This document shows, one piece after another, positions 17,352 to 34,036 of a DNA stretch of 64,000 nucleotides. The DNA is taken from the NCBI RefSeq assembly GCF_900142515.1, contig NZ_FRBC01000001.1:70115-134114 (forward strand), in the 5' to 3' direction. Position 1 is the stretch's first letter; each line of letters begins with the position of its first letter. A model generated the notes under the pieces. It had not been told where the DNA came from, made no database searches, and worked only from the letters and a program-made list of their open reading frames with translations. This stretch comes from Pseudoselenomonas ruminantium. Lineage in GTDB: Bacteria; Bacillota; Negativicutes; Selenomonadales; Selenomonadaceae. The translations under genes were made by a program, and so were the position numbers.

Positions 17352-20300
17352 ATGGCAAAAAGCACCTTGGAAAAGATGGGGCCTGCCGCTTCTGCGGCTT
17401 TGGCGGCCCAGGAAAGATTCAACGATACAGCCAGCAGCTTTCCCTTTGTGCCCGTGTCTCTGCAGATCCACCGCCAGGCGGAAGCGCATCCTGACCAGGT
17501 GGCGGTTATTGCGGCGGGGCGCAGGCTGACCTATGGGGAGCTGGACCGCAGGTCAAATATTCTGGCCAATTTCCTGCTGGAAAGGCTGGGCCGGGGCGGG
17601 GCTAAGGCCTGCCGGGACATGATCGTGGGGGTGGCTTTGGAGCGCACGGAGCTGGCCTATGTGGCAGAGCAGGGCATCCTGAAGGCGGGGGCGGCTTTCC
17701 TGCCTTTCGTGACCTCCTATCCTGATGAGCGCATCAAATATTGCCTGCAGGATGCAGGGGCCTCCCTGCTGCTTACTTCCCGGGCCCTCAAGGATGCCCG
17801 GCCGGGACTGGCGGGGGATTATGAAATCCTGGCGGTGGAGGAGCTGCTGGCAGCTGGCGACGACAGCTATCCCGGGCAGGTGGAGATAGGCCGGGAGGAC
17901 CTGGCCTATGTCATCTATACCTCCGGCTCCACCGGCAAGCCCAAGGGTGTCATGATTGAGCAGGGGAACCTGGCCAATTATGTGCAGCGGGATGAAAAAT
18001 CCATCGAAATCATGCACTATGCCCGGCCCGGGCGCATTGCCCTGGCCATGGCGGCTTTTTCCTTTGACGTTTCCGTGGTGGAGGAATTCGTGCCCCTGAG
18101 CAATGGCTGTACCGTCTGCCTGGCCACTGAGGCGGAGATACAGGACCCCTTCCTGCTGTCTGCCGCCATGCAGGAGCATCAGGTCAATGGCCTCACCTGC
18201 ACTCCCACTTTCCTGCTCAGCGTGCTGAATATTCCCGAATGCAGGGAAGCCTTGCAAGGGGTGGATTTCTATGATATCGGGGCCGAGGCTTTTCCTGCCG
18301 GGCTCTTTGGCAAGCTGCGGGAGCTGCGGCCCGACAGCGTGATCCTGAACGTCTACGGCCCCACGGAATGCACCATGGGCTGCGCCGCGTCCCTGATGGA
18401 GTCGGAAGGGGAAATCGTGGTAGGCGGCCCCATCGTGAATACGAAGTTCTATGTCATGAGCCCCCAGGGAGACTTCCTGCCCATCGGTGAAAAGGGAGAG
18501 CTGATTATCTGCGGGGACTGCGTGGGGCGGGGCTATATCAACCTGCCGGACAAGACAGCCAAGGCCTTTTTCACTTTGGAGGGGCTCCGGGCCTATCACA
18601 GCGGGGACCTGGCTTCCTGGACGGAGGCGGGCACCATCCGCATTCATGGCCGCATTGACAATCAGGTGAAACTGCGTGGCTTCCGCATCGAGCTGGACGA
18701 GATCGAGAAGGTGATGGCGGAATATCCCCAGGTGGATACCTGCGCCGTGAAGGTACTGCAGAGGGCGGGCATGTCCGATTACCTGGCGGGGTACTATACT
18801 TCAACGGAAGAAATCAGCCAGGAGGCTCTGCTGGCCTTCATGAAGGAACGGCTGCCGGAGTACATGCTGCCTGCCGCCCTGCTGCGGCTGGAGCAGATGC
18901 CCCAGACCGTCAATGGCAAGATTGACAGGAAAGAGCTGCCTTCCGTGGAGCCGGTGCAGGCCAGGACGGCCTATGTGGCTCCCCGCAATGACAACGAAAG
19001 ATATATCAGTGCCGCCTTTGCCCAGGTGCTGCGCCTGGAGGAGGGCTCTGTGGGCTGTGAGGATGATTTCTTCCAACTGGGGGGAGATTCCCTTTCGGCC
19101 ATGCTGCTGGTTTCCCGGCTCAGCCAGAAGGGCATCTCCAGCGCAGACGTGTTTTCCCTGCGTACTGTGGAGCGGCTGGCGGCCCTGCTGGAGGAGCGGG
19201 GGGAGGCAGAGTCTCTGGAGGAAATCGATGACCGGGAGAGACTCAGGCCTCACCGGCTGTCCCCCATGCAGGTGGAAATGCTGGACAACCAGTTTGCCAA
19301 GGTCAAGTCCACCATGTTCAACAATATGTCCTACCTCTTCCGCTTTCCCAAGGAAACTGACCCCGAAAGACTGCGCCAGGCGGTGAATGAGGCCATAGGC
19401 AATCATCCGGCCCTAGCCATGACCATCGGCTTCAACGATGACAATGAGCTGGTGCAGACCTATACTCCTGACATCCTTTCCGAAGTGCAGTACGAATACA
19501 TGAGCGATTTGGAAATCATCAGGCTGGCCCGGGGGCTGGTGCAACCCTTTGAGCTCTTCAATGCGCCCCTGCTGCGGTTGCGCCTCTTCCGCTCCCCCAA
19601 GTACACCTATATGTTCTTTGACGTGCACCATCTGGCCATGGACGGCTCTTCCCTGGGGCTGGTGCTGGCGGATATCACCAGGGCCTATCGGGGAGAGAGC
19701 CTGCCCCGTGACTACTACTGTGCCTATCTGGCCGCCGAGGAAAAGCTCTGCAACTCCCCCCAGTATGAGGAGGACAAGGAATATTTCCTCAAGGCCTACG
19801 GAGGCTTTGACTGGTGCAGCATTCCGGAGCCTGACCAGAGGGAGTCCCTGAAGCTGGAGGCACGGCAGCGCCGGGTGCAGCTGCCCTTTGATGAGGAGGA
19901 TCTGGTGGAGGCCGAGGAGCGCTGGCATGCCTCCCGCAGCGTCATGGCCATCGGCGCCGCCCTGCAGGCCCTACATGAGTTCACCGGCCGCAGGTACATT
20001 ATGTCCAACTGGATTTTCAACAACCGTCTGGGCAGCTATGCCGCCAATTCCGTGGGTATGCTGATTAAGAACCTGCCCGTGGGGGTGGATATGGAGAAGG
20101 CAAAGGATACCGGGGAACTGCTGGCGGAGGTGAAGCGCCAGGTCACCGAGGGCATTGCCCATTCCAGCTACGACTACTTCGTAGCCAAGGACAGGCCCTT
20201 TTTGGATGACCCCATGGAGGTGAACTACCAGTTGAATATCAATGCCGATGATCTGGCAGAGCTAAAACCCTTCTACCTGCCTCTGGACAATCAGTACTGT

Positions 20301-20462
20301 GCCCCCGGGGCCAGGCTGGAGCTGGAGTTTTTGGAGAACGACAACAACTCCGGCTGCTTTGAGTCAGAGTTTGAGTGGGCGGGCAATATCTTCACTACGG
20401 AAAAAATCGTGGCCTTCCACAACCTGTATATGGAAAAGTTCATCGAGATTGTGCATGGCTGA
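17352..20462 (+). CDS. Single-module non-ribosomal peptide synthetase (A-T-C)
   Basis: Activates an amino acid as adenylate, loads it on a carrier domain and offers it to a condensation domain. Domain order in 1036 residues: adenylation (about 30-535) with YTSGSTGKPKG at 189-199, NVYGPTE, YHSGDLA, QVKLRGFRIELDEIE and NGKIDRKEL; thiolation (about 545-625) with FFQLGGDSLS, phosphopantetheine Ser580; condensation (about 640-1036) with the catalytic HHLAMDG at 759-765. There is no thioesterase or reductase. My manual reading of the A-pocket is D-V-V-T-D-G-V-M-G-K; I do not recognise a substrate. GGAGGATAA precedes ATG 17352. Coding is visibly more GC-rich than neighbours, and a MATE exporter follows after 9 bases, suggesting product export. 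Horizontal acquisition is inferred. Confidence 0.92.
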   Translation: MAKSTLEKMGPAASAALAAQERFNDTASSFPFVPVSLQIHRQAEAHPDQVAVIAAGRRLTYGELDRRSNILANFLLERLGRGGAKACRDMIVGVALERTELAYVAEQGILKAGAAFLPFVTSYPDERIKYCLQDAGASLLLTSRALKDARPGLAGDYEILAVEELLAAGDDSYPGQVEIGREDLAYVIYTSGSTGKPKGVMIEQGNLANYVQRDEKSIEIMHYARPGRIALAMAAFSFDVSVVEEFVPLSNGCTVCLATEAEIQDPFLLSAAMQEHQVNGLTCTPTFLLSVLNIPECREALQGVDFYDIGAEAFPAGLFGKLRELRPDSVILNVYGPTECTMGCAASLMESEGEIVVGGPIVNTKFYVMSPQGDFLPIGEKGELIICGDCVGRGYINLPDKTAKAFFTLEGLRAYHSGDLASWTEAGTIRIHGRIDNQVKLRGFRIELDEIEKVMAEYPQVDTCAVKVLQRAGMSDYLAGYYTSTEEISQEALLAFMKERLPEYMLPAALLRLEQMPQTVNGKIDRKELPSVEPVQARTAYVAPRNDNERYISAAFAQVLRLEEGSVGCEDDFFQLGGDSLSAMLLVSRLSQKGISSADVFSLRTVERLAALLEERGEAESLEEIDDRERLRPHRLSPMQVEMLDNQFAKVKSTMFNNMSYLFRFPKETDPERLRQAVNEAIGNHPALAMTIGFNDDNELVQTYTPDILSEVQYEYMSDLEIIRLARGLVQPFELFNAPLLRLRLFRSPKYTYMFFDVHHLAMDGSSLGLVLADITRAYRGESLPRDYYCAYLAAEEKLCNSPQYEEDKEYFLKAYGGFDWCSIPEPDQRESLKLEARQRRVQLPFDEEDLVEAEERWHASRSVMAIGAALQALHEFTGRRYIMSNWIFNNRLGSYAANSVGMLIKNLPVGVDMEKAKDTGELLAEVKRQVTEGIAHSSYDYFVAKDRPFLDDPMEVNYQLNINADDLAELKPFYLPLDNQYCAPGARLELEFLENDNNSGCFESEFEWAGNIFTTEKIVAFHNLYMEKFIEIVHG

Positions 20463-20471
20463 GGAGTATTT

Positions 20472-21806
20472 ATGGAAATCAAGCTATCTGACCATTTCAC
20501 CTGCAAGAGGCTTCTGCTGTTCGCCGCCCCTACCATCGGCACAGTGGTTATCGCCATCACCTATGATGTGATTGACGGTTATTTCGTGTCCAATTTTATA
20601 GGCAAGACGGCTTTTGCCGCCGTCAATGTCATCTATCCCTTTCAGCTGATGCTGTCGGTGGTGGGCTATATGTTTGGCACCGGGGGCAGCGCCCTCATCG
20701 CCGCCCAGCAGGGCAAGGGGGATGAGGAGGGGGCCAACCGCTTCTTCACCATGATAGTCAAGTTCGCCCTGATGACAGGGGCGGTCATGGCCCTGCTGGG
20801 CTGTCTCTTCCTGCCGGAAATAGGCGCTCTGATAGGAGCCACGCCGGAAATCATGGAGTACGGCCTGCCCTATGGCCGCACCCTCTTCCTCTTCCTGCCG
20901 GTGATGATTGTGGGCTATGCCTTCCAGAGCCTGCTGATTACCGCCGAAAGACCCCAGTTTGGCCTCTACCTTTCCGTGGCCAATATGCTCAGCAACATCA
21001 TCTTTGACTACCTCTTCATCGTGGTGCTGGAGGGAGGCATGGTGGGGGCGGCCATCGCCACCGGCATCGGCGCCTGCCTGAACGGCCTGGTGCCCATGTG
21101 CTACTTTGCCCGGCCCAACAGCAGCTCCCTGCGCTTCGTTAGCTGCGGCATGGAAATCAAGCCCCTGCTGGGAGCCTGTTACAATGGCCTGTCGGAAATG
21201 GTGGAAGATATGTCCACCTCCCTGATTTTCGTCTTCTACAATTACCAGCTCCTGAGGCTGGCGGGGGAAAACGGGGTGGCGGCCTTCGGGGTGGTCATCT
21301 TTGTGGAGGGCTTCTTCACCGCGGTCTTCTGCGGCCTGGCCTTGCAGGCCAATTCCATCGTGGGCTACCATTTCGGCGCGGCCAACTTCACGGAGCTGAA
21401 AAGCCTGCTGAAAAAGGGCATTATGCTGAATTTGGGTTTCGGCTTGCTGATGTTTGTCCTGGCACGGTTTTCCGCGTCTGTCATTGCCGGCCTCTATGTG
21501 GGCTATGATGCGGAGGTTTGCGCCATGGCAGAGGAGGCCCTGCAGATTTATGCCCTGGCCTTTATCCTGCAGGGGTTCAATATCTACGCTTCCGCCTATT
21601 TCACCGGCCTGAACAACGGCAAGATTTCGGCCCTCATCGCCTTTGCCCGCACCTTCCTGGTGCAGACCGCCGCCATTTTCCTGCTGCCCATGCTCCTGGG
21701 CACCGCCGGCCTATGGCTGGCCCAGGCCACCGCCGAACTGGTGTCAGCCCTGCTGGCCGCTGCGCTGCTCTACGCCTGCCGCAGGGAGTATTGCGGGGAG
21801 GGGTGA
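20472..21806 (+). CDS. MATE-family efflux transporter
   Basis: Twelve-helix cation-coupled multidrug/toxin exporter of the MATE (DinF/NorM-like) type. The 444-residue protein begins MEIKLSDHFTCKRLLLFAAPTIGTVV and shows the two-fold repeat of six membrane segments, with GGSALIAAQQGKGD in the first half and the matching FGAANFTELK in the second. GAGGAG precedes ATG 20472, nine bases after the NRPS stop, so the two are translationally close and very probably one transcript. High GC and codon use match the NRPS. It likely exports the NRPS product or confers self-protection. The 45-bp repeat begins three bases after the stop. Confidence 0.93.
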   Translation: MEIKLSDHFTCKRLLLFAAPTIGTVVIAITYDVIDGYFVSNFIGKTAFAAVNVIYPFQLMLSVVGYMFGTGGSALIAAQQGKGDEEGANRFFTMIVKFALMTGAVMALLGCLFLPEIGALIGATPEIMEYGLPYGRTLFLFLPVMIVGYAFQSLLITAERPQFGLYLSVANMLSNIIFDYLFIVVLEGGMVGAAIATGIGACLNGLVPMCYFARPNSSSLRFVSCGMEIKPLLGACYNGLSEMVEDMSTSLIFVFYNYQLLRLAGENGVAAFGVVIFVEGFFTAVFCGLALQANSIVGYHFGAANFTELKSLLKKGIMLNLGFGLLMFVLARFSASVIAGLYVGYDAEVCAMAEEALQIYALAFILQGFNIYASAYFTGLNNGKISALIAFARTFLVQTAAIFLLPMLLGTAGLWLAQATAELVSALLAAALLYACRREYCGEG

Positions 21807-21853: not shown

Positions 21854-22074
21854 ATGTCCGGGCAGGATCATATCCGTTGCAAATGGATTGATGGGGAAAG
21901 GTTTTGTCTGCTTCAATAGTATTGCGAAGGAATCAATCGCGTCTATTGTATGAATAAATCGTTTTTAGAAAATTTTCATCTTTTAAAGGATTTGCTGTTT
22001 TGATGTAGAAGTAACAACACACGGAGATTTATGGATTTAAGGAAATGTAAAATACTAAAGAGAGGATGGTAGGT

Positions 22075-24054
22075 ATGGGGATCAGGCAGAAGTTTTCCGT
22101 CCTGGCCGGTATGGTTGGTTTGCTGATGGCAGTGGTATCCATTATCGGTTTTTACACGGCGGATAAGAATCTGGAACAGGCCGTGGAGCAGGAGCTTACT
22201 GCAACTATGGGTGATGCAGCATCCCAGATGGACGGCTGGCTGCAGGCTAAGGGGGCGTCCGCGCAGCATGCAGCTGATCTGATGACGGAGTTCAATGGTG
22301 ATGAAACCCGGCTCAAAAGCATTGCCTCTCTGGCTATTGGTGCTTCGGATGGGGAAATCCTGGATCTGAATGTCGGCATGGAAGATGGTTATTTCGCTTC
22401 TTATCGTACGCAGAACAAGAGCACAGGAACTTTAGACCCCCGTACGCGCCCCTGGTATAATGATGCCAAGAAGGCTGGCAAGATGAGCTTCACGGATCCT
22501 TATGTGGACAAGAATACGGGCAAGATGGTCGTGTCAGCAGTGGCACCGTTCAAGAAGGATGGTCAATTCTATGGTGCCATCTGTACGGATATTGACATGG
22601 CCGTTGTGGATGCACAGGTGGATAAGCTGAAATACCATGGTGAAGCAGGTATGGCTGCTGTAGCCGATAAGAATGGCGTGGTCCTGGGGATTGGAACAGA
22701 TGAACAGATTGGTTCCAAATTTCAGGATCTGCCTGGTGTAGGCAGTCATTTCGATGAAATGCAGCAAAAGGGCAAGGGCGTATTCGTCTTTGATAGTCCA
22801 CGTGATGGCAAGATGATCTGCGGTTATACGATCGTTCCCAGCACTGGCTGGATTTTCGCTATGAGTGTGCCTTATGATTATGTATTCTCGTCTGTGACGA
22901 CTTTGAAGATCGGATATGGTATCCTGACGGTAGTCGGTCTGATCCTGGTGTTGGGCGTATGTTTCAAAGTGGCTGCGGACATTACCAATCCGATTGTGGC
23001 ATTGGAAGGTAATGCCCGGGAGATGGCCAAGGGGAATCTGCGTCAGGAGAAACTGCCCGTTACGTCCCGGGATGAGATCGGCTCTCTTACGCAGGCTTTC
23101 AATACCATGAGTGAGAACCTGAGCAACCTGATCCGCCAGATGGCTACGACCTCGGAACAGGTGGCAGCATCTTCGGAAGAACTTACTGCCAATACCCAGC
23201 AGTCGGCAGAGGCAGCTGTGCATGTGGCGGAAACTGTGGGCGAAGTCAGCGGCAATGTGGCTCAGCAGTTGGGCGATATCGAACATGCCAAGAGCAGCGT
23301 GGGCGGTGTCTATAATGATATTGCCAATGTGGCAACCAAAGCCCGGCATATCACCACGGCTTCCCAACAGACGGCGGAAGCGGCAAAGAAGGGCGCCGGG
23401 CTGATGGAAGAGGCCATCAGCAAGATGGGAGCCATCGAGCAGAGCGTGCTTTCGTCTTCGGAAGTCGTGAAGACCTTAGGGGAGAGTTCCCAGCAGATTG
23501 GGCAGATCGTGGAGGCGATTTCCTCCATTGCCCAGCAGACCAACCTGCTGTCCCTCAATGCCGCCATCGAGGCAGCCCGTGCCGGTGAACAGGGCCGGGG
23601 GTTTGCGGTAGTAGCAGAGGAAGTCCGTAAATTGGCGGCTGAATCCCAGGAATCGGCAGAGCAGATCAAGGAGCGCATTGCCTCCATCCAGAATGAGACT
23701 GCCCGGGCGGTGGATTCCATGCAGAGCGGCACGCAGGAAGTTACCCTGGGAACCAAGGCTATCCGGGATGTAGGGGAACAATTTGAAGATATCATGAGCA
23801 AGGTGGACGATATCAATACCCAGATTGGGGAAATCAGCAATGCTGTTTCTCAGGTTTCTACAGGTGCTGAACAGATTGTGACGGCAGTGGAGGCTATCGA
23901 CAGCATAACGCAGAAAACTGCGGACAGCATGCAGACCATTTCTTCGGCAACGGAAGAACAGTCCGCTTCCAATGAAGAAATCGCCGCCGCTTCACAGGCC
24001 TTGGCCAATATGGCTGGGAAGATGCAGGAAGCCGTGTCCAGATTCAGCGTATAA
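22075..24054 (+). CDS. Methyl-accepting chemotaxis protein with dCache sensor
   Basis: Transmembrane chemoreceptor controlling CheA. ATG 22075 is preferred over 22066, which abuts the GAGAGG site. In 659 residues: TM1 (about 10-28), a periplasmic double-Cache region (about 30-285), TM2 (about 290-310), HAMP (about 312-365) and a long cytoplasmic signalling coiled coil with the tip [17 protein letters not shown]. The sensor holds [14 protein letters not shown] and CTDIDM, matching the arginine-tryptophan-tyrosine and aspartate pattern known for amino-acid-binding dCache_1 domains, so an amino-acid ligand is a reasonable guess. No CheR-tethering pentapeptide is present. Seventy bases separate it from the next receptor without a terminator. 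Confidence 0.93.
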
Positions 24055-24123
24055 ACAAGTCCTGTTCCGCGAATCGAATCATATCGGCAGGGATGCATAA
24101 TAAAGTTGGAAGGAGAGAAGATC

Positions 24124-25854
24124 ATGGGATTCATCAGAAACATCAGTGTTGCCCAAAAACTGGCATGTATCGGCGTGCTGGCTTTCATTGCCACGCTGAT
24201 TGTGGGCTGGGTTGGTTATACTTCAATCAGGGCAGCCCGAGCGGATATGGAAGAGCTTTACAATGAAGATACCATGAGCATCTACTATTGTTCTCAGGTA
24301 CGCTACAACACCCGTTATTCGCAGATTCAGGCCAGTCTCCAGCCGTATACCAATAAGCCGGAATACCGTCAGGAGCGGGTGACGAAATTCAATGCGGCCA
24401 TTGCCGAAGCGGAAGATTTCATGCAGAAGTATGAAGCGCTGCATGCCAAACATCCGAAAAGGGCAGAGATGGCGGCCAAGGTGCGCAAGGACTTTGATGC
24501 TTACAAGGCTAATGCCGCTCAGCTTTTGCAGATGAATGCCTATGAAAGCGAAGATGATTTAGCCCCAATGATGTTCTATCAGGAAAAGGTCATGCCGCTG
24601 GCCGTGGCCATGTCTGGTGACCTGGAAGCTGTCCAGGGCAGAAGTCTCGAAGATGCCAAAAAAGGACTGGATAAGGGCGAAGAAGATATGAACAGTGCGG
24701 TTTTCCGCATGGTGGTTACCTGTGCCGTCATCATCGTGGTGCTGACACTGGCTATTGCCTTTGTGACCAAGCAGATCACAGGACCGCTGCAGCTGGTTAT
24801 CCGGGTCTGCGAGAAACTTTCCAAGGGCGATTTCCGTACTGGCGGAATGATTGGCACTGTGGAACGTGGGGATGAATTCGGCCGCATGGAAGCTGCGGTC
24901 CGCGATATGCGCATCACGGTCAACAATCTGATCAAGAAGGTCATCACCTCCACCGAACAGCTGGCGGCGTCTTCGCAGGAGCTTACGGCCACGGCACATC
25001 AGTCGGCACTGGCTTCTGAGCAGGTGGCCCAGCGTGTGACGAGCTCTGCCGGTGCTGTCATCGAACAGCAGAAGGATGTGGAGGAGGCCATGGAGTCCAT
25101 CGATAACACCATGAACTCCATCAGCAACCTTAATCAGACCGCTGGTGAAGTCACGGCCAATGTCACGGAATCCCATAAACAGGCACAGGATGGCAGCAGT
25201 GCCATTGGCAGTGCTGTGGATAAGATTGTCAGTGTCGAGTCGATCGTCAACAGTTCTACTGCTACGGTGGATAAGCTGGGGCAGCGTTCGCAGGAAATCG
25301 GCCAGATTGTGGAGACCATTTCCGGTATCGCTGACCAGACGAATCTGCTGGCTCTCAACGCCGCTATCGAAGCAGCCCGTGCCGGCGAGCATGGCCGCGG
25401 CTTTGCTGTTGTAGCTGATGAAGTGCGGAAGCTGGCCGAAGAGTCCCAGAATGCGGCTAAGCGCATTACAGACTTGATTGGAGCAATTCAGAATGATACC
25501 ACGGATGCGGTCAACTCCATGCAGAGGGGCAATGCCGCCGTCAAGGAAGGTACCGAATCCGTCAGCCAGCTCAAGGCGGCCTTTGATAAGATCCTGGAGG
25601 CTTCTGATGCTGTGGCGGATAAGGCTCATGGTATGAGCGGCGATTTGAAAGTGGTATCGGACGATACAGAAAATGTCCGCAATCGTTCCAGCAAGATTTC
25701 CGAGAACAGCCGCCGGGTGGCTGCCGATATGGAAAGCGTATCCGCCGCCGCCGAAGAACAGTCCGCTGCGGCCGAAGAAATCGCCTCGGCAAGTGAGGCG
25801 TTGGCCCAGCTGGCGCATGGCCTGCAAACGGCTGTGGGCGAGTTCAAGGTGTGA
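24124..25854 (+). CDS. Methyl-accepting chemotaxis protein, four-helix-bundle sensor
   Basis: The start is ATG 24124, after GGAAGGAGAG; an upstream in-frame ATG at 24106 precedes that site. The 576-residue receptor has TM1 near residues 12-32, a helical periplasmic domain (about 35-190) of the 4HB_MCP type with no Cache motifs, TM2 near 195-220, HAMP, and a signalling domain with tip [20 protein letters not shown]. It is probably co-transcribed with the preceding receptor; both end at the terminator at 25903-25938. Ligand unknown. Confidence 0.93.
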
Positions 25855-25902
25855 TTTTCAGGGACTTTGATAAGTCAATAGGTGGATAAGGTGAATGCAG
25901 GG

Positions 25903-25938
25903 CGGGCGGTTGAAAAGTCAGCCGCCTGCTTTATTTTG
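25903..25938 (+). terminator. Terminator after the second chemoreceptor
   Basis: GCGGGCGGTTGA (25903-25914) pairs with TCAGCCGCCTGC (25919-25930), then TTTATTTT. Confidence 0.8.
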
Positions 25939-26016
25939 AAAAGCAGATTGATATGTGGGAGAAGGCAGCGGAAAAAGGGATAATGCTGCTGAAATCAGGA
26001 AGGGAAGTGCTGTCTT

Positions 26017-27735
26017 ATGCAATGGATGGATAATCTGAAGGTGCCAGTAAAATTGGGATTGATGGTGGCCGTAGGAATCATCGGCATGCTGTTGATTGGC
26101 TGGTCGGCCTATAGTGCGCTGAGCAAGGCACAGCGTGATATGACTTTTATGTATGCCACATCATTGACTGGTATGGAGCGTGCCCAGGAGGCCCGTTTCC
26201 AGATTCGCCGTGCCCATGCGCTGGCGGTAGAAATGATGACCTCGGATGAGATGGATTTCCTGAAGAAAACCAAGGGAACCTATGACGAAGCGGTCAAGAA
26301 TGCTGATAAGGCTGTAGCCGATTATGCGGCCATCAAGGAGGACAACCCCAAGATCATTGAAATGACCAAGGCCATTCAGACGGATTGGGAAAGTTTGAAG
26401 AAAGAGAATGCCGTGGTTGTTCAGTATACGTTAGAGCTCAAGAATGCCGAAGCTTTCCAGCATACGCAGACTAAGTCCGTGCCGGTTATGCTGCGCCTGA
26501 CCAAGACGCTGGATGAGCTCAATGAAGTAGAACATCAGCGGGCAGAAACACTGGACAAGCAGAATGATGCTGATACAGCCGCCGCTATCCGCGATATGCT
26601 GCTGGAATGTGTGATTGTGCTGGTGGTTTTGGTGGTGGTCAGCTATATTGTGATGAAGGGGGTTATGGCGCCGATTGAGATGATGATTGCGGGCTGCCGG
26701 AAAATGAAGGACGGCGACTTCCGCATTACGGCCAATCCGGTACAGCGCGGGGATGAGTTCGGCATTGTGGCAGATGCCTTCTTCCAGATGCGCAAGACTA
26801 TCGGTGAACTCATGCAGACCACCAATGAAAGCGCCCAGCAACTGGCGGCTTCGTCAGAAGAACTCACGGCCAGCGCCCATCAGGCAGCGCAGGCGGCAGG
26901 TTCGGTGGCGCAATCGGTGGGGCAGGCTTCCCATGCCGTGACGGAACAGGGCAATTTTGTCAGTGAGGCCGGCGAGGCCATCAAAGAGCAGAACAGTTCG
27001 CTGGAAACCCTGAACAAGACGGCGGATGATGTGGTCAGCTATGCGGGCCATGCCAACAGCAGGGCTACGGAGGGCGGACGCAATGTCAATGCCGCTGTGG
27101 AGCAGATCATCAGCGTGGAAAAGATTGTCAATGGTTCTGCTGTGACGGTGGACAAGCTGGGCCAGAGTTCCCAGGAAATCGGTCAGATTGTGGAAACCAT
27201 CTCCGGTATTGCCAATCAGACAAATCTGTTGGCCCTCAATGCCGCCATCGAGGCTGCACGGGCTGGCGAACATGGCCGCGGTTTTGCCGTGGTGGCTGAC
27301 GAGGTGCGCAAGCTGGCGGAGGAATCCCAGAATGCCGCCCAGCGAATCACGACTCTGATTAGCGGCATCCAGAAGGATACAGCCGAAGCGGTGTCCTCGA
27401 TGAAATCCGGCAGTGAGGCCGTGCAGGCCGGTTCTCGGGCGGTTTCCGAATTGCGGGATACCTTTGCCCAGATCGAAGAAGCAACCAACGGTGTAGCGGA
27501 GCGGGCGCGGCTTATGCTGGAAGAACTGCGGGTAGTGGCGGCGGAAGCCAATAGCATCGATGCGAAGACGAAGAGCATTGCCGACAATGGCAAGCTGATT
27601 TCCAGCGAGATGGCCAGTGTGTCAGCAGCTTCGGAGGAGCAGTCCGCTTCGGCAGAAGAGATTGCTTCGGCCAGCGAATCCCTGGCACAGTTGGCACAGG
27701 AACTGCAAAACTCCCTGGAGCGTTTCGAATATTAA
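26017..27735 (+). CDS. Methyl-accepting chemotaxis protein, four-helix-bundle sensor
   Basis: A 572-residue chemoreceptor with AGGAAGGG before ATG 26017. TM1 lies near residues 9-30, the periplasmic part (about 32-190) is helical and charged, TM2 near 193-215 ([15 protein letters not shown]), then HAMP and a signalling domain with tip [20 protein letters not shown]. Its cytoplasmic part closely resembles that of the preceding receptor while the sensors differ, as expected after duplication and sensor divergence. It forms its own unit, separated by terminators on both sides. Confidence 0.93.
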
Positions 27736-27795: not shown

Positions 27796-30309
27796 TCATA
27801 TCATATTGGCGGTTTCCTGTTCCATATGGATGGGGACGATGGATTGCTTGGCCAGTGGCAGGGTCAGTGCAATCATGATTTCTGTCCCCTCTTTCGGTTC
27901 CGAGACGATGTTGAGGGAACCCTGGAAGAGTTCAATCAGATGTTTGGTGATGGCCAGACCGCGTTCCGGACTCTGGCTCTGGAACAATTGCTCCCAATCG
28001 CTGTCGTGCAGGAGCTTTTCACGGATCTCCGGAGGCATGGCGGCATCGGAATTGTGGATTCGCAGTTCATAGTCGGCATAGAGCTGGAAGTGTTGGTAGC
28101 TGTCCTCTGCCGTTTCCTTATGGTAGGCGAAGCCCTTCTGGGCCAGCGTGACAGCGATGCTGCCGCCCACAGGCGTGAATATGTACGCAAGGCTGATGAG
28201 GTTCAGCAGGATGCGCTGCAAGCGGTTCTTATCGCAGTATACATAAGGATTTTCCAGTTCTTCGGTATAGACCATGAAGCTGATATTCTTGTCCTGCATC
28301 TGTTCGGTGAAGATATCCTTGACCTGTTTCAGGTTGTAGCGGATATCTGTAGGTACGGGATAAAGCTTCAGCTTATTGCTCTGGATGCGGTCTACGTTTT
28401 CCATTTCCCGGACCAGATGAAGGAAGTAGTGACTGATGGAATCCGTATGCAAGATTCCCTGATAGAGACCGTTCAGGGCATCATGGGGACAGCGGCCGGC
28501 TTTGTCCTTGTAGTCTTCGCCGTTTTCCCGGGCAAGTTTCACATAGCTCATGATAGCATCCATGGTCAAGCCGATGTCGTGTGTCATATTCGAAAGATAT
28601 GCACCACGGGTGCGGCTGGCCAGCTGCTGGGCGGCAACGACTTTATTCATCGCGTGTTCCCGTTTGCGCATGGTGGTGAATATATCAGCCATGAAGAGCA
28701 GGATCAGCATGATGAGTACGATCTGGATGGTGCTGTTATGGTTGAGGATCTCATGGATGGGGGCATAGCCGCCCATATGGGCAAGGGGAATCTTGGTGAT
28801 GATGACCTGCCGCAGCCAGAGAGCCGTGGAGAAGAAGTTCAGGAACAGAAGGATGGTGCATAGCGAGAAGGACTTGCCGAAGCGTTCCTGCTTGTCGTGT
28901 TTGAAGACATACCAGTAATAGATCAGCCCCAGGATGCTCCAGACGGCCAGCAGCAGATAGGATTCGGTTTCCAGTGTGCTGCCTAAGAGCAGGTCGGGGA
29001 CGATAGGGCAGAAGAAAAAGAACAGGGAGAGCAAAAGGCCTGCAATACCCATGAACATGCCGGCGGAATCGTTCTCTGACCGGGCAGTCCGATAGCGGCA
29101 AAGTGATACATAAGCATAGGCAATGGAACCGCTGATGGTGATGGCATCCACCAGCCAGACAATGGCGGTGCGACCTAAGAAAGGAATGGGCAGGGATACC
29201 AGAAGTATCAGGAATACTGCCTTGCGGGGAGTGCCGTCCTCTGCCTGGGTGGCAAAGACAGCGGGCAGGAGGTCATCTTTGGCCATGGACTGAAGCAGAA
29301 AGGAGCAGCCACGGTAGAGTCCATTGATACCGGTGAAGATGCCTGCTAAAACGGTTGCGGCTAATAGTGCCATGCCGCCGGGGCCTAAAAGGGCATCGAC
29401 ACCGTGGAAGACTGGCAGGGCATCGAAGCCCTGCAGATGGCTCAGGGAGGTGATGTATTCATGCCAGGTAGCAAATTCTGCGGGGCTGCCCATGACCGCA
29501 ATGGCAATGGGCAGACTGTAAGCCAGGAAGGTGGCGATGACAGCAATGATGATGATGGGGAAGGTGTGCTGGATGGGGAACCGGAATTCCTCACCGCCGT
29601 GAGTGACGGATTCAAAGCCAAAGAACATCCAGGGGGCCACCATCAGCATGCTGAAAATCTGTAAAAAAGGCGTGCCGCCGATATCCGGGTCAAAAGCCGG
29701 ATAGAAGCTGGCATGACGGGGGCTCATGGCCAGTACGCCGCTGAAGAGCAGCAGGATGCCGAAGAAGAGCAGCAGGGCCAGCATGGTGTTGACAGGCCGT
29801 TTGGCCTTGCCTGCAAAGGCAGAGAACAGGCCAAAGGCAATGAGCAACAGCCAGGTGGTGAGGATTTCTCCGGCGTAGACATCGAAGCCGGCTAGTTTAT
29901 AGTGGAACCCCCATTGAAGTACCCCGCCAAAGTAGAAGCGTACGAGCACAACCACGGCGGTGGCGTTGGCCCAGATGATGGAAAGGTAAGTGACGATGAG
30001 CGCCCAGGCTGCTAAGAATGCATGGTCATGACCCATTACTTCCCGCACATAGGCGAAGAACCCGCCGTTGTCCCGATATTTCTGCGCCAGCTTGCAGAAG
30101 TTGGCACCGATGACCAGCATGGCAATGCTGCCCAAAGCGATGGCAAGGATGCTGCCCACGGGACCTGCATGGGGCAGAAAGAGATTGCCTGGCATCATGA
30201 ATGCCCCCCAGCCCACGGCACAGCCGAAGGACAGGCCCCAGACATTCAGGGGGGAGAGCAGGCGGACATTGGCCTTTTCGGCAGTTTCTGTATCTTTGCT
30301 CGTATTCAT
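27796..30309 (-). CDS. APC-type permease fused to degenerate histidine kinase (fusion 1)
   Basis: An 837-residue hybrid. Residues 1 to about 550 form a polytopic membrane domain resembling amino-acid/polyamine permeases, with the unwound first-helix motif GWGAFMMPGNLF and some 12 or more hydrophobic segments. Residues from about 570 resemble a histidine kinase: H-box LSNMTHDIGLTMDAI (His577), N-box and G-boxes. The ATP-binding core is altered: the key N-box Asn is Leu (LLNLISLA, residue 707), the G1 Asp-x-Gly is NSD (753-755), and the glycine-rich G2 is PERGLAI. It is probably a pseudokinase that keeps its phospho-accepting His. It starts 12 bases after fusion 2, so they are co-transcribed. 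Whether it transports or only senses is unknown. Confidence 0.85.
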   Translation of the reverse strand: MNTSKDTETAEKANVRLLSPLNVWGLSFGCAVGWGAFMMPGNLFLPHAGPVGSILAIALGSIAMLVIGANFCKLAQKYRDNGGFFAYVREVMGHDHAFLAAWALIVTYLSIIWANATAVVVLVRFYFGGVLQWGFHYKLAGFDVYAGEILTTWLLLIAFGLFSAFAGKAKRPVNTMLALLLFFGILLLFSGVLAMSPRHASFYPAFDPDIGGTPFLQIFSMLMVAPWMFFGFESVTHGGEEFRFPIQHTFPIIIIAVIATFLAYSLPIAIAVMGSPAEFATWHEYITSLSHLQGFDALPVFHGVDALLGPGGMALLAATVLAGIFTGINGLYRGCSFLLQSMAKDDLLPAVFATQAEDGTPRKAVFLILLVSLPIPFLGRTAIVWLVDAITISGSIAYAYVSLCRYRTARSENDSAGMFMGIAGLLLSLFFFFCPIVPDLLLGSTLETESYLLLAVWSILGLIYYWYVFKHDKQERFGKSFSLCTILLFLNFFSTALWLRQVIITKIPLAHMGGYAPIHEILNHNSTIQIVLIMLILLFMADIFTTMRKREHAMNKVVAAQQLASRTRGAYLSNMTHDIGLTMDAIMSYVKLARENGEDYKDKAGRCPHDALNGLYQGILHTDSISHYFLHLVREMENVDRIQSNKLKLYPVPTDIRYNLKQVKDIFTEQMQDKNISFMVYTEELENPYVYCDKNRLQRILLNLISLAYIFTPVGGSIAVTLAQKGFAYHKETAEDSYQHFQLYADYELRIHNSDAAMPPEIREKLLHDSDWEQLFQSQSPERGLAITKHLIELFQGSLNIVSEPKEGTEIMIALTLPLAKQSIVPIHMEQETANMI

Positions 30310-30321
30310 ATGGATTCTCCT

Positions 30322-32784
30322 TTATCCCTCGGTCAAAGGTTCGGCACTGGCCGTTTCCAGACCTGTGTCTGCCAGCGGCAGTGACAAGGTCACCACGATG
30401 TCCTTGCCGATGTCCTGTCCGGTGCTGCTGACCTTGATGGTTCCTTTGAGCAGGCTGACCAGTCCCTTGGCGATGCATAACCCGCCCAGACCGGTGCTGT
30501 CAATCTCGAAGGGTTCTTGTATATGAGTGATGATATCCGGCGGGATATTGGCGCCTGAGTCATTGATGTGGAGCTCATACACGGCACCGGGAACTTCTTG
30601 TCCCTGATAGGTGACGGTGGCAGGGCTGGTTTCCAGCAGTGTCACCATGACGCCGCCGCCATAGGGGGTGAATTCGCAGGCGTTGCTGACCAGATTGATG
30701 AGGATGCGCTCCAGGCGCTGTTCGTCACAAATGACAGTGGGGTGGGGCAGTTCGATGGGATAGACTTCGAAAAAGATATTCTTGGCCTGCATTTCCAGTG
30801 CGAAGATATCCTTGATATGCTGCAGGGTGTGCCGCCAGTCCATCGGGGCAAAGTCCAGGGGAATCCTGTCTTTGCTCGTGCCTATGCTCATATTGCGCTG
30901 ATCCAGCATGCTGCCAATCAGGTGCATGAGATACTGGCTGTGGCTGTCCAGCTGCCCAAGACAGTTGGATAAGCGGTCGGGAATGCGATGGGGGCAGCTG
31001 TCCACATCACAGGCAGAGCAGATGGTGCAGTTTTCCAGCGAATGATGGACAGAGAGCTGCGCTGCTTCCATGGGAATGCGGATGTCATGTGCCAGATTGC
31101 GCAGGTAGGTGTTCTGTGCATGGTTGATTTCATGCTGCCTTTGCAAGGTCTGTGTCATTTTCCGTTCCCGCCGTTTCAGTGTGATGAAGATATTGGTCAT
31201 CAGCAGCAGGATGATCATGAGCATCACCATCTGCACCACGCTGTCTGCAGCCAGCACATTGTAACTGGACGCAGAATTGCTGGACACGGATTCACGCAGG
31301 CGCTGTTCCATGACTTGCCGTAACCAGAGACTGGTGGAGAAGAAGTTCAGGAAGAGGATCATGATGCACATGGATGTGCTGTGACCAAAGCGGTCATGGT
31401 TGTCGTATTTGAAAACATACCAATAATAGATGAAGCCCAGGATGCTCCAGACTGACAGCATCAGATAGGATTCTGTGTCCAGTGACCCGCCTAAGAGCAG
31501 GTCAGGGATCAGGGGGCAGAAAAAGAACAGGCAGGAGATGAAGATGCCGATGATGCCTAAGTACCTGTCCAGTGGGCGGCCTTCTTTTTGCGCCAGCTTA
31601 TAGGCACAATAGGAGGCGTAGCCATAGGCGACAGAACCTACGACCGTGATGATGTCGCAGAGCCAGACGATGGAAACCCGCCCCAGGAAGGGAATCAGCA
31701 GGGAAATGAACATCACAAAGATGATGGCATGACGGGGCGTTTCGTCAGCGGCACGCTGCTTGAACCAGACAGGCAGGACCTCGCATCTGGCCATGAAATG
31801 CAGCAGACGTCCGCAGGTGCGGTAAAGTCCCATGAGGCTGGTGATGATGGCGCAGTCGATGGATACGCAGAGAAAGAGCAGTCCTTCTCTGCCGAAAACG
31901 GCATGCACGCTATGGAATACCGGCAGTCCGGCAAGTCCCTCAAGATGGGGGCGCTGGGCGATATAGGTAGTCCAGGAGGCGTATTCCGGCGGGATGGACA
32001 TGATGGCCATGGCCGCCAGCAGGATATAGATAAGTCCACCGCTGAGCACGGCTGCGATGACAATGGGAAAGAGTCTTTTGCTGGAAAAATCAAAATCATC
32101 GCAGGCATGGGTGACGGCCTCAAAGCCGAAGAACATCCAGGGAGCCAGCATCACCATGCTGAAGACCTGCATGGCAGGATTGGTATAGGATTGGAAGGCT
32201 GGCGTGAATACACTGGTACCTACTTGACGGAACATGGCTATGAACAGGATGAGGACGGACAGGAAAAAAACGACAGCACAAAGCGTATTCAGGTATCTGG
32301 CGACCTTGCCGCTATAGCAGGCGAACAGGCCGAAGATGATGATGACCAGCCAGGTGGCCAGCACCTCGCCAAAGTAAATGTCAAAACCGGCAATGGTGTA
32401 GAGGTAGCCCCAGGAGAGCCAATCTCCGTGCAGGAAACGGAATAGGAGCACATTGGCGGTAGCATTGGCCCAGAGGATGGAAAGATAGGCAATCAGCAGG
32501 ATCCAGGCAGCCAGGAAGGCGTGATCATGGCCGATGATATTGCGGACATAGGCGACGATACCGCCATCGTCAGGGTATTTTTCTGCCAGCCGGCAGAAAT
32601 TGGCGCCGATGATAAGCAGCAGTGCCGTACTGATCCCCATGGCGAGTATGGTGCCCAAAGGGCCTGCCGTAGGAATGAAGAGATTGGCTGGCACCATGAA
32701 AGCACCCCAGCCCACAGCGCAACCCAGGGAAAGGGCCCAGATGTGGAGTGGGGAGAACAGGTTCATCCGTGTGTTGTTATCCAT
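30322..32784 (-). CDS. APC-type permease fused to histidine kinase (fusion 2)
   Basis: An 820-residue paralogue of fusion 1. The N-terminal ~540 residues are an APC-like permease domain (GWGAFMVPANLF in helix 1). The kinase part has H-box LRNLAHDIRIPMEA (His566), an intact N-box ILINLVSNACEF (Asn701), G1 NDSGANIP (Asp742) and G2 TGLGGLCIAKGL, so it should bind ATP. Between the dimerisation helices is CTICSACDVDSC (Cys586, 589, 592, 597), a cluster that could bind metal or sense redox; fusion 1 lacks it. GGAAGGAG lies before ATG 32784. A response regulator with a good acceptor Asp is not adjacent. Substrate sensing coupled to signalling is the likely role, by analogy with transporter-kinase hybrids such as CbrA. 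Confidence 0.87.
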   Translation of the reverse strand: MDNNTRMNLFSPLHIWALSLGCAVGWGAFMVPANLFIPTAGPLGTILAMGISTALLLIIGANFCRLAEKYPDDGGIVAYVRNIIGHDHAFLAAWILLIAYLSILWANATANVLLFRFLHGDWLSWGYLYTIAGFDIYFGEVLATWLVIIIFGLFACYSGKVARYLNTLCAVVFFLSVLILFIAMFRQVGTSVFTPAFQSYTNPAMQVFSMVMLAPWMFFGFEAVTHACDDFDFSSKRLFPIVIAAVLSGGLIYILLAAMAIMSIPPEYASWTTYIAQRPHLEGLAGLPVFHSVHAVFGREGLLFLCVSIDCAIITSLMGLYRTCGRLLHFMARCEVLPVWFKQRAADETPRHAIIFVMFISLLIPFLGRVSIVWLCDIITVVGSVAYGYASYCAYKLAQKEGRPLDRYLGIIGIFISCLFFFCPLIPDLLLGGSLDTESYLMLSVWSILGFIYYWYVFKYDNHDRFGHSTSMCIMILFLNFFSTSLWLRQVMEQRLRESVSSNSASSYNVLAADSVVQMVMLMIILLLMTNIFITLKRRERKMTQTLQRQHEINHAQNTYLRNLAHDIRIPMEAAQLSVHHSLENCTICSACDVDSCPHRIPDRLSNCLGQLDSHSQYLMHLIGSMLDQRNMSIGTSKDRIPLDFAPMDWRHTLQHIKDIFALEMQAKNIFFEVYPIELPHPTVICDEQRLERILINLVSNACEFTPYGGGVMVTLLETSPATVTYQGQEVPGAVYELHINDSGANIPPDIITHIQEPFEIDSTGLGGLCIAKGLVSLLKGTIKVSSTGQDIGKDIVVTLSLPLADTGLETASAEPLTEG

Positions 32785-32914: not shown

Positions 32915-34036
32915 TTATCGTACTATCTTATATATGGCATGGGGAATGCTCAAGAGCGGCAGCTGCTGCTGTACGGCACCCAGTTCGAAGGCGGCTTTGG
33001 GCATGCCATAGACGGTGCTGCTGGCGGCATCCTGTCCGATGGTGGGGGAACCGAGATTGCGCATCTTCAGGAGGCCTGCGGCGCCGTCCTTGCCGATGCC
33101 TGTAAGGATGATGCCCATCGCGTGATTGCCGGCCACATCGGCTACGCTGTCAAAGAGCACATCAACAGACGGGCACACGCTGTGGACAGGCGGCCCGGGC
33201 TTGCATTCGAGCATATAGCGGGTGCCCATACGGCTGAGCGTCATATGCTTGGCACCCGGCGCGATATAGACATGGTTGGGCAGCACGATATCACCGCTGA
33301 CGGCTTCCTTGACCGTCAGGCTGCTCTCGGTATTCAGGCGTTCAGAGAAGAGACGGCTGAACATCGGCGGGATGTGTTGGACAATGACGATGCCCGGCAG
33401 CGGCGGTTCCAGACGGGTGATGATGGCGGACAATGCCTCGGTGCCACCCGTGGAAGCTCCTATGGCAATGAGGTCGATATGGGCCGCGTTAGGCGGAACA
33501 TTGATCATCGGTTCGATGGGAGACAGGGCCGGTTTGGGCGGCGGTGGTGGCTGCACTGGTTTGGAAGCCCGCCAGATTTCCTTGGTCACCACGGCGCCGC
33601 CGCCGATGTCACCATGAGACCAGGCCGTAGTGGGAGCAGAGTCCTTGGTCTGGGAAACCAGCAGAGTGCGCATGAGATTGTCCAGGAATGGCTCCATAGG
33701 CTGCCCGACAGATGGTTTTTTCAAATAGTGGGACGCACCGAGAATCTTGGCTGCCTTTTCCCCGCTTTCCAGAATGCCATAGGTGATGATTGGCACTTCT
33801 GAGTATTTCTTGGCAAGCAGGGGCAGGAACTTTTCCTGATTGACCAGCAGAGAGCCCAAAGCGAAGTTCAGCACGATGATGTTGGGCTTGAATACCGCCA
33901 TCTTGTTCAAGGCCTCAACGGGTTGGGCGGCGTGTTCCACAAGACTGCCCGCTGGGAGCCTTGTGTTAAGTTCCTGCACCAGGGTGTTTTGAAACGTTAT
34001 GGAGTTGTCAATCGCAAACACCCGTAAGTTCCGCAT
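32915..34036 (-). CDS. cheB: CheB-type methylesterase with non-phosphorylatable receiver
   Basis: CheB removes methyl groups from chemoreceptors. The 373-residue protein has a receiver-like N-terminal domain (1-120), a proline-rich linker (PVQPPPPPKPALSP, about 160-173) and a methylesterase domain with the catalytic triad Ser195 (IGASTGG), His221 (VQHIPP) and Asp317 (GIGKDG). In the receiver the phospho-acceptor Asp is Asn57 (IIVLNFAL) and the acidic pair is reduced to IDNS, although the conserved Lys before Pro is kept. The enzyme is therefore expected to be insensitive to CheA phosphorylation, or regulated otherwise. It lies among four chemoreceptors, with no cheR in the window. It is not co-transcribed with the fusions because of the terminator between. 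Confidence 0.9.
   Translation of the reverse strand: MRNLRVFAIDNSITFQNTLVQELNTRLPAGSLVEHAAQPVEALNKMAVFKPNIIVLNFALGSLLVNQEKFLPLLAKKYSEVPIITYGILESGEKAAKILGASHYLKKPSVGQPMEPFLDNLMRTLLVSQTKDSAPTTAWSHGDIGGGAVVTKEIWRASKPVQPPPPPKPALSPIEPMINVPPNAAHIDLIAIGASTGGTEALSAIITRLEPPLPGIVIVQHIPPMFSRLFSERLNTESSLTVKEAVSGDIVLPNHVYIAPGAKHMTLSRMGTRYMLECKPGPPVHSVCPSVDVLFDSVADVAGNHAMGIILTGIGKDGAAGLLKMRNLGSPTIGQDAASSTVYGMPKAAFELGAVQQQLPLLSIPHAIYKIVR

What the first reader, a model, noticed from the sequence alone, without database searches (positions are those of the whole stretch)
27796..32784. Tandem fusions of an APC-type permease to a histidine kinase
Two paralogous genes each join a full amino-acid-permease-like membrane domain (about 540 residues) to a kinase domain. 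CbrA shows that transporter-kinase hybrids exist with an SLC5-type module, but an APC-type module duplicated in tandem is one I cannot place in a described system. It may couple uptake or binding of an amino acid/amine to gene control or motility, given four chemoreceptors and a CheB nearby.
Basis: partly seen in the sequence, partly recalled or inferred. Interest (0 to 1): 0.78.

Follow-up and report, generated by a model that had tools for sequence, protein, structure and literature searches.

The report
Amino-acid-permease sensors fused to kinases
Rumen bacteria of the Selenomonas group carry a side-by-side pair of membrane proteins that look like amino-acid transporters turned into sensors, each joined by one long helix to a partly worn-down signalling kinase and encoded next to a chemotaxis enzyme whose usual on-switch residue has been replaced.

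Summary
Window 27796-30309(-) (P1, 837 aa) and 30322-32784(-) (P2, 820 aa) each join an APC-fold membrane domain to a DHp/CA kinase region. AlphaFold gives an AdiC-like fold (Z 40, P2) and an unbroken helix from the last membrane segment through the H-box His in both. The APC module plus a TM13-TM14 hairpin belongs to a larger sensor-like family, undescribed in the papers seen: matching frames of 680 aa or more in 82 of 350 genomes of the class, elsewhere fused to HK-REC, GGDEF or GGDEF-REC-EAL; nine stand-alone relatives form a separate clade. In 24 tandem proteins the receiver and H+4 Thr are gone and the G2 box is altered. In CheB-linked pairs P1 also loses the N-box Asn (8 of 8) and mostly the G1 Asp (6 of 8), yet stays under purifying selection. 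That CheB lies directly upstream in 15 of 15 informative loci; in 14 of 14 scored, the receiver Asp is Asn. Most likely: a heteromeric APC 'transceptor' (P2 the less damaged kinase, P1 a pseudokinase) feeding chemotaxis. Architecture is predicted; ligand, heteromer and output are inferred. New variant of a known kind (cf. CbrA, Ks-Amt5).

The parts
30322..32784 (-). P2: APC-fold membrane domain + TM13/14 hairpin + DHp/CA (upstream and less degenerate member of the pair)
31375..32784 (-). P2 APC core, residues 1-470; fusion-only conserved residues D87, W105, A106, E222
30865..31374 (-). P2 TM13-hairpin-TM14 running as one helix (508-591) into DHp; H-box His566 at 31087-31089
   Evidence: W487 in 39 of 39 fusions and 0 of 9 stand-alone proteins, most of which end before it
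30325..30864 (-). P2 CA domain: both N-box Asn and G1 Asp kept, G2 box altered (STGLGGL for GTGLG), G1-to-G2 stretch 4-8 residues shorter than in APC-HK-REC relatives
27796..30309 (-). P1: paralogue of P2 with the same architecture and a pseudokinase-like CA domain
28870..30309 (-). P1 APC core, residues 1-480
28375..28869 (-). P1 TM13/14 and DHp (helix 515-598); H-box His577 at 28579-28581
27799..28374 (-). P1 CA domain: N-box second Asn replaced by Leu, G1 Asp by Asn, no G2 box; dN/dS 0.08-0.18 in four comparisons
32915..34036 (-). CheB-like gene upstream on the same strand (130 bp gap): receiver with Asn57 (33866-33868) in place of the phospho-Asp; methylesterase motifs kept; paralogue of a canonical CheB elsewhere in the genome
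26017..27735 (+). 4HB-type chemoreceptor, convergent with P1 (associated)
24106..25854 (+). 4HB-type chemoreceptor; its relatives lie convergent to P1 in 9 of 11 other loci (in L123 behind a relative of 26017-27735), Anaerovibrio included (associated)
22066..24054 (+). dCache-type chemoreceptor at the edge of the block; also beside the CheB in two loci that lack the pair (associated)

Best explanation
P1 and P2 are sensory transceptors. An APC (AdiC/CAT-type) transporter fold serves as a ligand receptor, probably for a cationic amino acid or amine. Ligand-driven movement of the APC core is passed through an added TM13-TM14 hairpin and one continuous helix to the DHp domain (architecture: predicted in both models; movement: inferred). 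The tandem pair works as a heteromer: P2 keeps most residues for ATP binding and supplies what kinase activity remains, while P1 keeps its phospho-acceptor His but not the ATP-binding residues and acts as a pseudokinase partner or phospho-acceptor (inferred from residues). The output is motility control through the neighbouring chemotaxis genes, above all the CheB with a non-phosphorylatable receiver, which would have to be controlled by contact or expression level, not by phosphorylation (inferred from linkage and residues).
For: Fold and helix continuity. The same APC+TM13/14 module occurs on HK-REC, GGDEF and GGDEF-REC-EAL outputs, with nine stand-alone APC proteins on the other side of a branch supported 100/100; that is how sensor domains behave. 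Fusion-only conserved residues in TM3 (W105-A106, next to a shared N107) and TM6 (E222; Asp in 8 of 9 stand-alone relatives), and in the hairpin region. H-box His and H+1 Asp kept in 34 of 34 while other motifs change in a lineage-specific pattern. Every domain of P1, P2 and CheB under purifying selection, dN/dS 0.02-0.19 outside the CheB linker. CheB directly upstream in 15 of 15 informative loci and MCP convergent downstream in 9 of 11 besides the window (the loci are not all independent). Receiver Asp to Asn in 14 of 14 pair-linked CheBs scored. CheB, P2 and P1 3-18 bp apart or overlapping, by first in-frame start, in the Anaerovibrio loci. Nearest solved sequences are cationic amino acid transporters.
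Against: No experiment. Ligand, transport ability, dimer partner and CheB contact are untested. P1 still scores above the Pfam HATPase_c cut-off (37.4 against 26.4 bits), so its ATP site may not be dead. Window P2 keeps a shifted TGLG. The CheB paralogue also occurs without the pair (empty sites L134, L136). The five pairs outside the CheB-linked group have no CheB beside them. P2 does not group with the upstream member of those pairs (p-AU 0.0057). In Anaerovibrio a hybrid kinase with its own receiver lies beside or near the pair (L050 by Pfam; L045, L046, L048 by similarity), so a phosphotransfer partner may exist there. Two of 11 loci have no MCP beside P1.
Confidence: 0.47

Rival explanations
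1. A conventional transceptor two-component system in the manner of CbrA: P2 is an active kinase, P1 a co-sensor, and phosphate goes to another response regulator that controls amino-acid metabolism. The CheB and MCPs are just neighbours.
For: P2 keeps His, both N-box Asn and G1 Asp, and a shifted TGLG, and scores well above the HATPase_c cut-off. The CheB occurs without the pair. The APC-HK-REC relatives scored look catalytically intact and lie in unrelated neighbourhoods. In Anaerovibrio a receiver-bearing hybrid kinase lies close by.
Against: Full GTGLG absent in 24 of 24 tandem proteins and G1-to-G2 stretch shortened in 8 of 8 P2. The only receiver gene seen directly beside the pair in the Selenomonas loci is the CheB with Asn. 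The CheB-P2-P1 order holds in two genera.
Confidence: 0.3
2. P1 and P2 are working amino-acid transporters, and the kinase remnant is only an oligomerisation or regulatory tail.
For: APC fold complete (Z 40 to AdiC); GWGAF (TM1) and PWxFxGFE-like (TM6) motifs kept; the CA domain is less conserved than the APC core in 7 of 8 comparisons.
Against: H-box His and Asp kept in 34 of 34; the same APC module carries kinase and cyclase domains elsewhere; fusion-specific residues in TM3 and TM6 set it apart from stand-alone relatives.
Confidence: 0.15
3. A decaying relic of APC-HK-REC kinases on the way to pseudogenes.
For: Stepwise motif loss; patchy presence (9 of 21 other genomes of the genus at E<=1e-60); G1-G2 region partly deleted in two Anaerovibrio P1 rows (L045, L046); one P2 split in two frames (L049).
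Against: dN/dS 0.03-0.19 in every domain of P1 and P2, CA domains included; apart from contig-edge fragments and L049, the frames are open.
Confidence: 0.04

Closest known systems
CbrA / CrbS / RpuS (SLC5-STAC histidine kinases)
   Same: A membrane transporter domain and a histidine kinase in one chain; proposed transport-linked signalling (PMC13022988 abstract and passages; PMC9100948 passages). The SLC5/SSS family is counted as a member of the wider APC superfamily (PMC3924187, passages).
   Different: SLC5 rather than AA_permease family; the STAC and PAS domains between membrane part and kinase are not seen here, where one helix runs straight into DHp; no tandem pair or pseudokinase member in the passages read.
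Ks-Amt5 (ammonium sensor histidine kinase)
   Same: A transporter fold repurposed as sensor and joined to DHp/CA without a HAMP-type transducer; binding drives kinase activity while transport is lost (PMC5764959, abstract and passages).
   Different: Amt trimer, one gene, phosphorylation shown. Here APC fold, an added hairpin, a pair, and eroded kinase motifs.
Sensor kinase-MFS fusion family (TC 2.A.1.34) and SSS-sensor kinase proteins of Myxococcus xanthus
   Same: Transporter-type membrane domains with sensor kinase domains, two of them called probably non-transporting (PMC3924187, passages).
   Different: MFS or SSS, not AA_permease; no APC-family fusion is mentioned in the passages seen.
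Ssy1 (yeast SPS amino-acid sensor)
   Different: Eukaryotic; signals through Ptr3/Ssy5, not through a fused kinase.
AdiC, GkApcT and CAT1-type APC transporters
   Same: Fold and nearest solved structures/sequences of the membrane part.
   Different: No fused signalling domain; identity 13-18% in the structural alignments.
DivL and other pseudo-histidine kinases
   Same: A kinase-like protein repurposed or lacking a function but kept in signalling (PMC4211667 start of abstract in listing; PMC12632262 passages).
   Different: DivL is recalled to lack the phospho-acceptor His; P1 keeps the His and lacks the ATP-binding residues.
CheB
   Same: Receiver plus methylesterase with Ser/His/Asp motifs (triad assignment recalled).
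   Different: Phospho-Asp replaced by Asn; the genome has a separate canonical CheB in a cluster that by eye holds flagellar and chemotaxis genes.

Membership tests
SLC5/STAC histidine kinases (CbrA family) | SLC5 (SSS) transporter domain | tested here: not met
   Pfam gives AA_permease families and no SSS hit up to E=1
SLC5/STAC histidine kinases (CbrA family) | STAC domain between transporter and kinase | tested here: inconclusive
   None among Pfam hits up to E=1, but whether this Pfam copy holds a STAC model was not checked; the predicted helix 508-591 runs from the last membrane segment through the H-box without a domain between
APC superfamily (AA_permease) | APC fold and sequence profile | tested here: met
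APC superfamily (AA_permease) | Transport activity | not testable with these tools
   The TM5 Lys recalled from ApcT/GkApcT is hydrophobic here and in the stand-alone relatives alike, so it does not discriminate
HisKA-type histidine kinase | Phospho-acceptor His with following acidic residue | tested here: met
   34 of 34 rows, both window proteins included; the HisKA profile itself is sub-threshold in P2 and not listed in P1
HisKA-type histidine kinase | N, G1 and G2 boxes of the CA domain (P2) | tested here: inconclusive
   N and G1 kept; G2 altered (STGLGGL), G1-to-G2 stretch shortened; HATPase_c above cut-off
HisKA-type histidine kinase | N, G1 and G2 boxes of the CA domain (P1) | tested here: not met
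   N-box Asn 0 of 8, G1 Asp 2 of 8 (not the window), no GTGLG or remnant; HATPase_c profile still above cut-off
APC-HK-REC hybrid kinases (relatives found here) | C-terminal receiver domain | tested here: not met
   No Response_reg hit in P1 or P2; present in L019, L021, L098 and L121
CheB | Methylesterase domain and catalytic motifs | tested here: met
CheB | Phosphorylatable receiver Asp | tested here: not met
   Asn in 14 of 14 pair-linked and 28 of 29 non-canonical rows scored; Ser in L144
Ks-Amt5-type ammonium sensor kinase | Amt domain | tested here: not met
   No Amt family among Pfam hits up to E=1

The most novel reading that the evidence does not exclude
A phosphorylation-free branch of chemotaxis: a heteromeric APC transceptor built from a damaged kinase and a pseudokinase senses amino acids or amines and switches, by direct contact, a CheB that can no longer be phosphorylated, so that nutrient binding at a transporter fold resets receptor methylation. 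It would be the extreme member of an undescribed APC sensor family that plugs one input module into kinases, diguanylate cyclases and phosphodiesterases.
Probability: 0.2. Interest if true: 0.87.

Novelty: new variant of a known kind. Interest (0 to 1): 0.68.

Why it matters
Bacterial transporter-kinase 'transceptors' in the papers read are of SLC5/SSS, Amt and MFS type. An APC-family input module that keeps one membrane design while swapping outputs (HK, HK-REC, GGDEF, GGDEF-REC-EAL), with stand-alone relatives still alive, gives a comparative series for asking how a transporter becomes a receptor; fusion-only residues already point to where the change may sit. The tandem pair adds a graded series from intact to pseudokinase, and a CheB family with Asn at the phosphorylation site, which makes phosphorylation-independent signalling in chemotaxis directly testable.

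Tried and rejected
Pseudogene decay: made unlikely by dN/dS. One duplication giving both members of all pairs: P2 plus the upstream member of the CheB-less pairs as one clade is rejected (p-AU 0.0057), while P1 groups with the downstream member; long branches are in play. Two separate origins of the GGDEF fusions: drawn so in the tree, but one origin is not excluded (p-AU 0.279). TM5 lysine as a sign of lost transport: uninformative. Substrate by sequence: only a lean to cationic amino acids; AdiC leads the structural list, but many APC chains follow within a few Z units. Foldseek matches the kinase part (HK853 and others); the VIA-align rows cover residues 5-470 for the most part, so the kinase part was barely tested there. 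Literature. I saw listings (all rows; 25 of 102; 15 of 17; 12 of 537; none found) and passages of eight papers. None of what I saw describes an APC-family kinase or GGDEF fusion, or a CheB with Asn. Most subscription papers are absent from that library; Korycinski 2015 (STAC) was seen only as a reference.

The full GTGLG is absent from 24 of 24, but remnants stay in 7: a shifted TGLG in 2 P2 rows, window included, and GxG[LMI]xI in 5 rows of the CheB-less pairs. The draft also overlooked receiver-bearing hybrid kinases near the Anaerovibrio pairs. For these I moved the best explanation from 0.50 to 0.47, the first rival from 0.27 to 0.30 and the novel case from 0.22 to 0.20. Two notebook figures (15 CheB rows; 29 of 30) are superseded by 14 and 28 of 29.

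Rows dropped or not scored: 15 of 18 fetched regions gave a CheB row (L145, L147 and L149 gave none because my ORF picker kept longer overlapping frames). In-19 contig-edge fragments show gaps and were not counted; the motif counts come (34 full-length rows chosen from those fetched). L038's CheB was hidden by an overlapping frame and recovered. The CheB-upstream count leaves out L043 (contig starts there) and L055 (P2 cut). The MCP count leaves out L039, L040, L043, L047 and L056 (too little sequence after P1). L047/L048 and L055/L056 come from near relatives or one genome. Genome searches scored only some first-look candidates per genome (up to 4, 3), so copy numbers are lower bounds.
Full report
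WHAT IS THERE. The window lies in a 3.1-Mb genome whose nearest named relatives are Selenomonas ruminantium, class Negativicutes. Two genes on the minus strand, P2 (30322-32784, 820 aa) then P1 (27796-30309, 837 aa), 12 bp apart, are 46-47% identical and are each other's only full-length match in the genome; other matches cover the kinase part alone. Pfam puts AA_permease families in the N-terminal half and HATPase_c in the C-terminal part of both. HisKA is sub-threshold in P2 and not listed for P1.

STRUCTURE. AlphaFold2 gives P2 mean pLDDT 80.2 on a 29-row alignment and P1 80.7 on 32 rows. In P2 residues 5-470 align to AdiC (3ob6_A) at Z 40, rmsd 3.0 over 422 residues, 14% identity; Foldseek also returns HK853-type kinases for the C-terminal part. 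After the APC core come two more membrane-type helices. The second continues as one helix (508-591 in P2, 515-598 in P1) through the H-box His (566 and 577). Both are monomer predictions.

A LARGER FAMILY. A profile of the APC+TM13/14 part (alignment A2) matched 87 of 350 genomes of the class at E<=1e-60, own genome included; 82 of these have at least one matching open frame of 680 aa or more, 78 in family f1 and 4 in f15 (my count from its table; domains were checked only in those named below). In a sample of 398 genomes of the phylum, 10 matched; of the seven beyond the window's own family only one (G592, 963 aa) is of fusion length, the rest being frames of 411-532 aa. By Pfam the fusions carry HK-REC (L019, L021, L098, L121), GGDEF (L098 twice, L107 twice) or GGDEF and REC and EAL (L101, 1470 aa, two GGDEF stretches). 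In a 48-row tree of the N-terminal 600 residues the nine stand-alone APC proteins fall on one side of a branch (100/100) and the 39 fusions on the other. P1 (8 rows) and P2 (8 rows) are each one clade (100/100). P1 is sister to the downstream members of the CheB-less pairs (95/93). P2 does not join their upstream members (p-AU 0.0057).

FUSION-SPECIFIC RESIDUES. Across 39 fusions and 9 stand-alone relatives, D87, W105, A106, D461, G467 and W487 are invariant in the fusions and absent from every stand-alone protein (most of which have gaps at the last three or lie at their end); E222 is Glu in 38 of 39 fusions and Asp in 8 of 9 stand-alone ones. W105-A106 sit in TM3 beside N107, which both groups share; E222 is in the TM6 motif PWxFxGFE. 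By recalled AdiC numbering these lie near N101 and E208 of its substrate site; that mapping was not computed here. D461, G467 and W487 belong to the junction and hairpin region.

KINASE EROSION. From 34 full-length proteins: H-box His and next Asp 34 of 34. H+4 Thr 10 of 10 in HK-REC, 0 of 24 in tandem proteins (recalled as a residue needed for HisKA phosphatase activity). Full GTGLG (G2 box) 10 of 10 versus 0 of 24, with remnants in 7 of the 24: TGLG in the window P2 and L038, GxG[LMI]xI in 5 of 8 rows of the CheB-less pairs, none in P1. Second N-box Asn 26 of 26 outside P1, 0 of 8 in P1. G1 Asp 26 of 26 outside P1, 2 of 8 in P1. The G1-to-G2 stretch is 30-32 residues in P2 against 36-38 in HK-REC and CheB-less pairs. 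So the receiver and H+4 Thr went, and G2 changed, in all tandem proteins scored, and P1's ATP site went further only in the CheB-linked lineage. Nei-Gojobori dN/dS between close relatives (four pairs each) is 0.08-0.18 for the P1 CA domain, 0.04-0.19 for P2 CA, and 0.03-0.15 for APC core and TM13-DHp of P1, so these are maintained proteins. Against a dead P1: its HATPase_c score is still above the Pfam cut-off.

THE CheB NEXT DOOR. A CheB-like gene lies directly upstream of P2 in the window and in all 14 other CheB-lineage loci with upstream sequence (L038-L042, L044-L050, L056, L123), and in 0 of 5 other pairs (L051-L054, L092). In the window the gap to P2 is 130 bp; in the Anaerovibrio loci the three genes lie 3-18 bp apart or overlap, by first in-frame start. 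Its catalytic motifs are kept, but the receiver Asp is Asn in 14 of 14 pair-linked rows and in 28 of 29 non-canonical rows in all; one (L144) has Ser. The genome has a second, canonical CheB (DDS... TMDVNMP) in what by eye is a flagellar/chemotaxis cluster. Against a strict link: CheB-like genes matched in 56 of 189 family genomes at E<=1e-70 (canonical ones may be among them), several of the 15 scored lie without the pair, and two syntenic sites (L134; L136 with secA) have the MCP and CheB but no pair between them. An MCP lies convergent to P1 in 9 of 11 loci with enough sequence besides the window. L045 and L050 instead have a hybrid kinase beside P1; L046 and L048 have both. The L050 copy carries an SBP_bac_3 domain and a receiver; the others were seen by similarity only.

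INTERPRETATION. Modular reuse, fusion-specific core residues, helix continuity and selection point to a sensor whose input is an APC fold. Nearest solved sequences are CAT-type cationic amino acid transporters, hence the guess at a cationic amino acid or amine. The division of damage between P1 and P2 suggests a heteromer in which P2 retains most ATP-site residues and P1 does not; trans-phosphorylation of P1 by P2, or a purely conformational pair, both fit. Linkage to CheB and MCPs suggests chemotaxis as output. The Asn receiver speaks against ordinary phosphotransfer to this CheB, leaving contact, expression level or another target. These last steps are inference.

KNOWN SYSTEMS. CbrA (PMC13022988, abstract and passages), RpuS/CrbS (PMC9100948, passages), Ks-Amt5 (PMC5764959, abstract and passages) and the MFS- and SSS-type sensor kinase fusions named in PMC3924187 (passages) show that transporter-kinase fusions exist; none is of the AA_permease family or a tandem pseudokinase pair in what I read. 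PMC3924187 counts SSS (SLC5) within the wider APC superfamily, so the present proteins differ from CbrA at family, not superfamily, level. PMC11109136 (passages) shows another transporter-like membrane fold (5TMR) with modular outputs. Pseudo-receivers and pseudo-histidine kinases are reviewed in PMC12632262 (passages; the term CheB does not occur in its main text). Passages of the c-di-GMP sensing review PMC8846402 and of the Megasphaera genome paper PMC3832451 mention no such fusion. Hence 'new variant of a known kind', with a bolder reading kept in the section on the most novel reading.

Noticed in passing
L101:1574-5986 (-); L098:904-5596 (+); L107:2956-9160 (+): The same APC module fused to GGDEF, REC and EAL in one protein (1470 aa) and, as neighbouring genes, to GGDEF; in L098 the two APC-GGDEF genes sit beside an APC-HK-REC gene.
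   Followed up: partly
L134:7795-8907 (-); L136:6892-7992 (-); L148:6200-7339 (-); L151:6353-7483 (-): A CheB paralogue with Asn (once Ser) at the receiver phosphorylation site in other genomes of the family, also without the APC pair; in L148 beside an HK-REC kinase (Pfam) and in L151 beside a frame similar to one (blastp only).
   Followed up: partly
L045:7021-10002 (-); L046:9077-12091 (-); L048:9016-11997 (-); L050:14070-17069 (-): Beside or near the pair in Anaerovibrio: a hybrid kinase of about 1000 aa; the L050 copy carries SBP_bac_3 (amino-acid-binding type), HisKA, HATPase_c and a receiver (the others by similarity only).
   Followed up: partly
window 23127-27000 against L123: The MCP stretch is 94-100% identical in DNA to a relative whose adjoining P1-P2-CheB-secA stretch is mostly 76-91% identical, which suggests recent exchange of the MCP block.
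   Followed up: partly
L092:1985-3940 (+); L052:952-2853 (-): Flagellin-like genes near two of the CheB-less pairs (about 50 bp and 6 kb), another hint of motility; in L051, L054 and L092 a CstA-like gene lies on the upstream side of the pair (names by eye).
   Followed up: no
window 17352-21806 (+): A 1036-aa protein that looks like an NRPS-type adenylation/condensation enzyme, followed by a MATE-like exporter (by eye).
   Followed up: no
L105:746-6923 (+); L021:2-4365 (+): APC-HK-REC gene directly downstream of what looks like an RND-type efflux pump gene (by eye).
   Followed up: no
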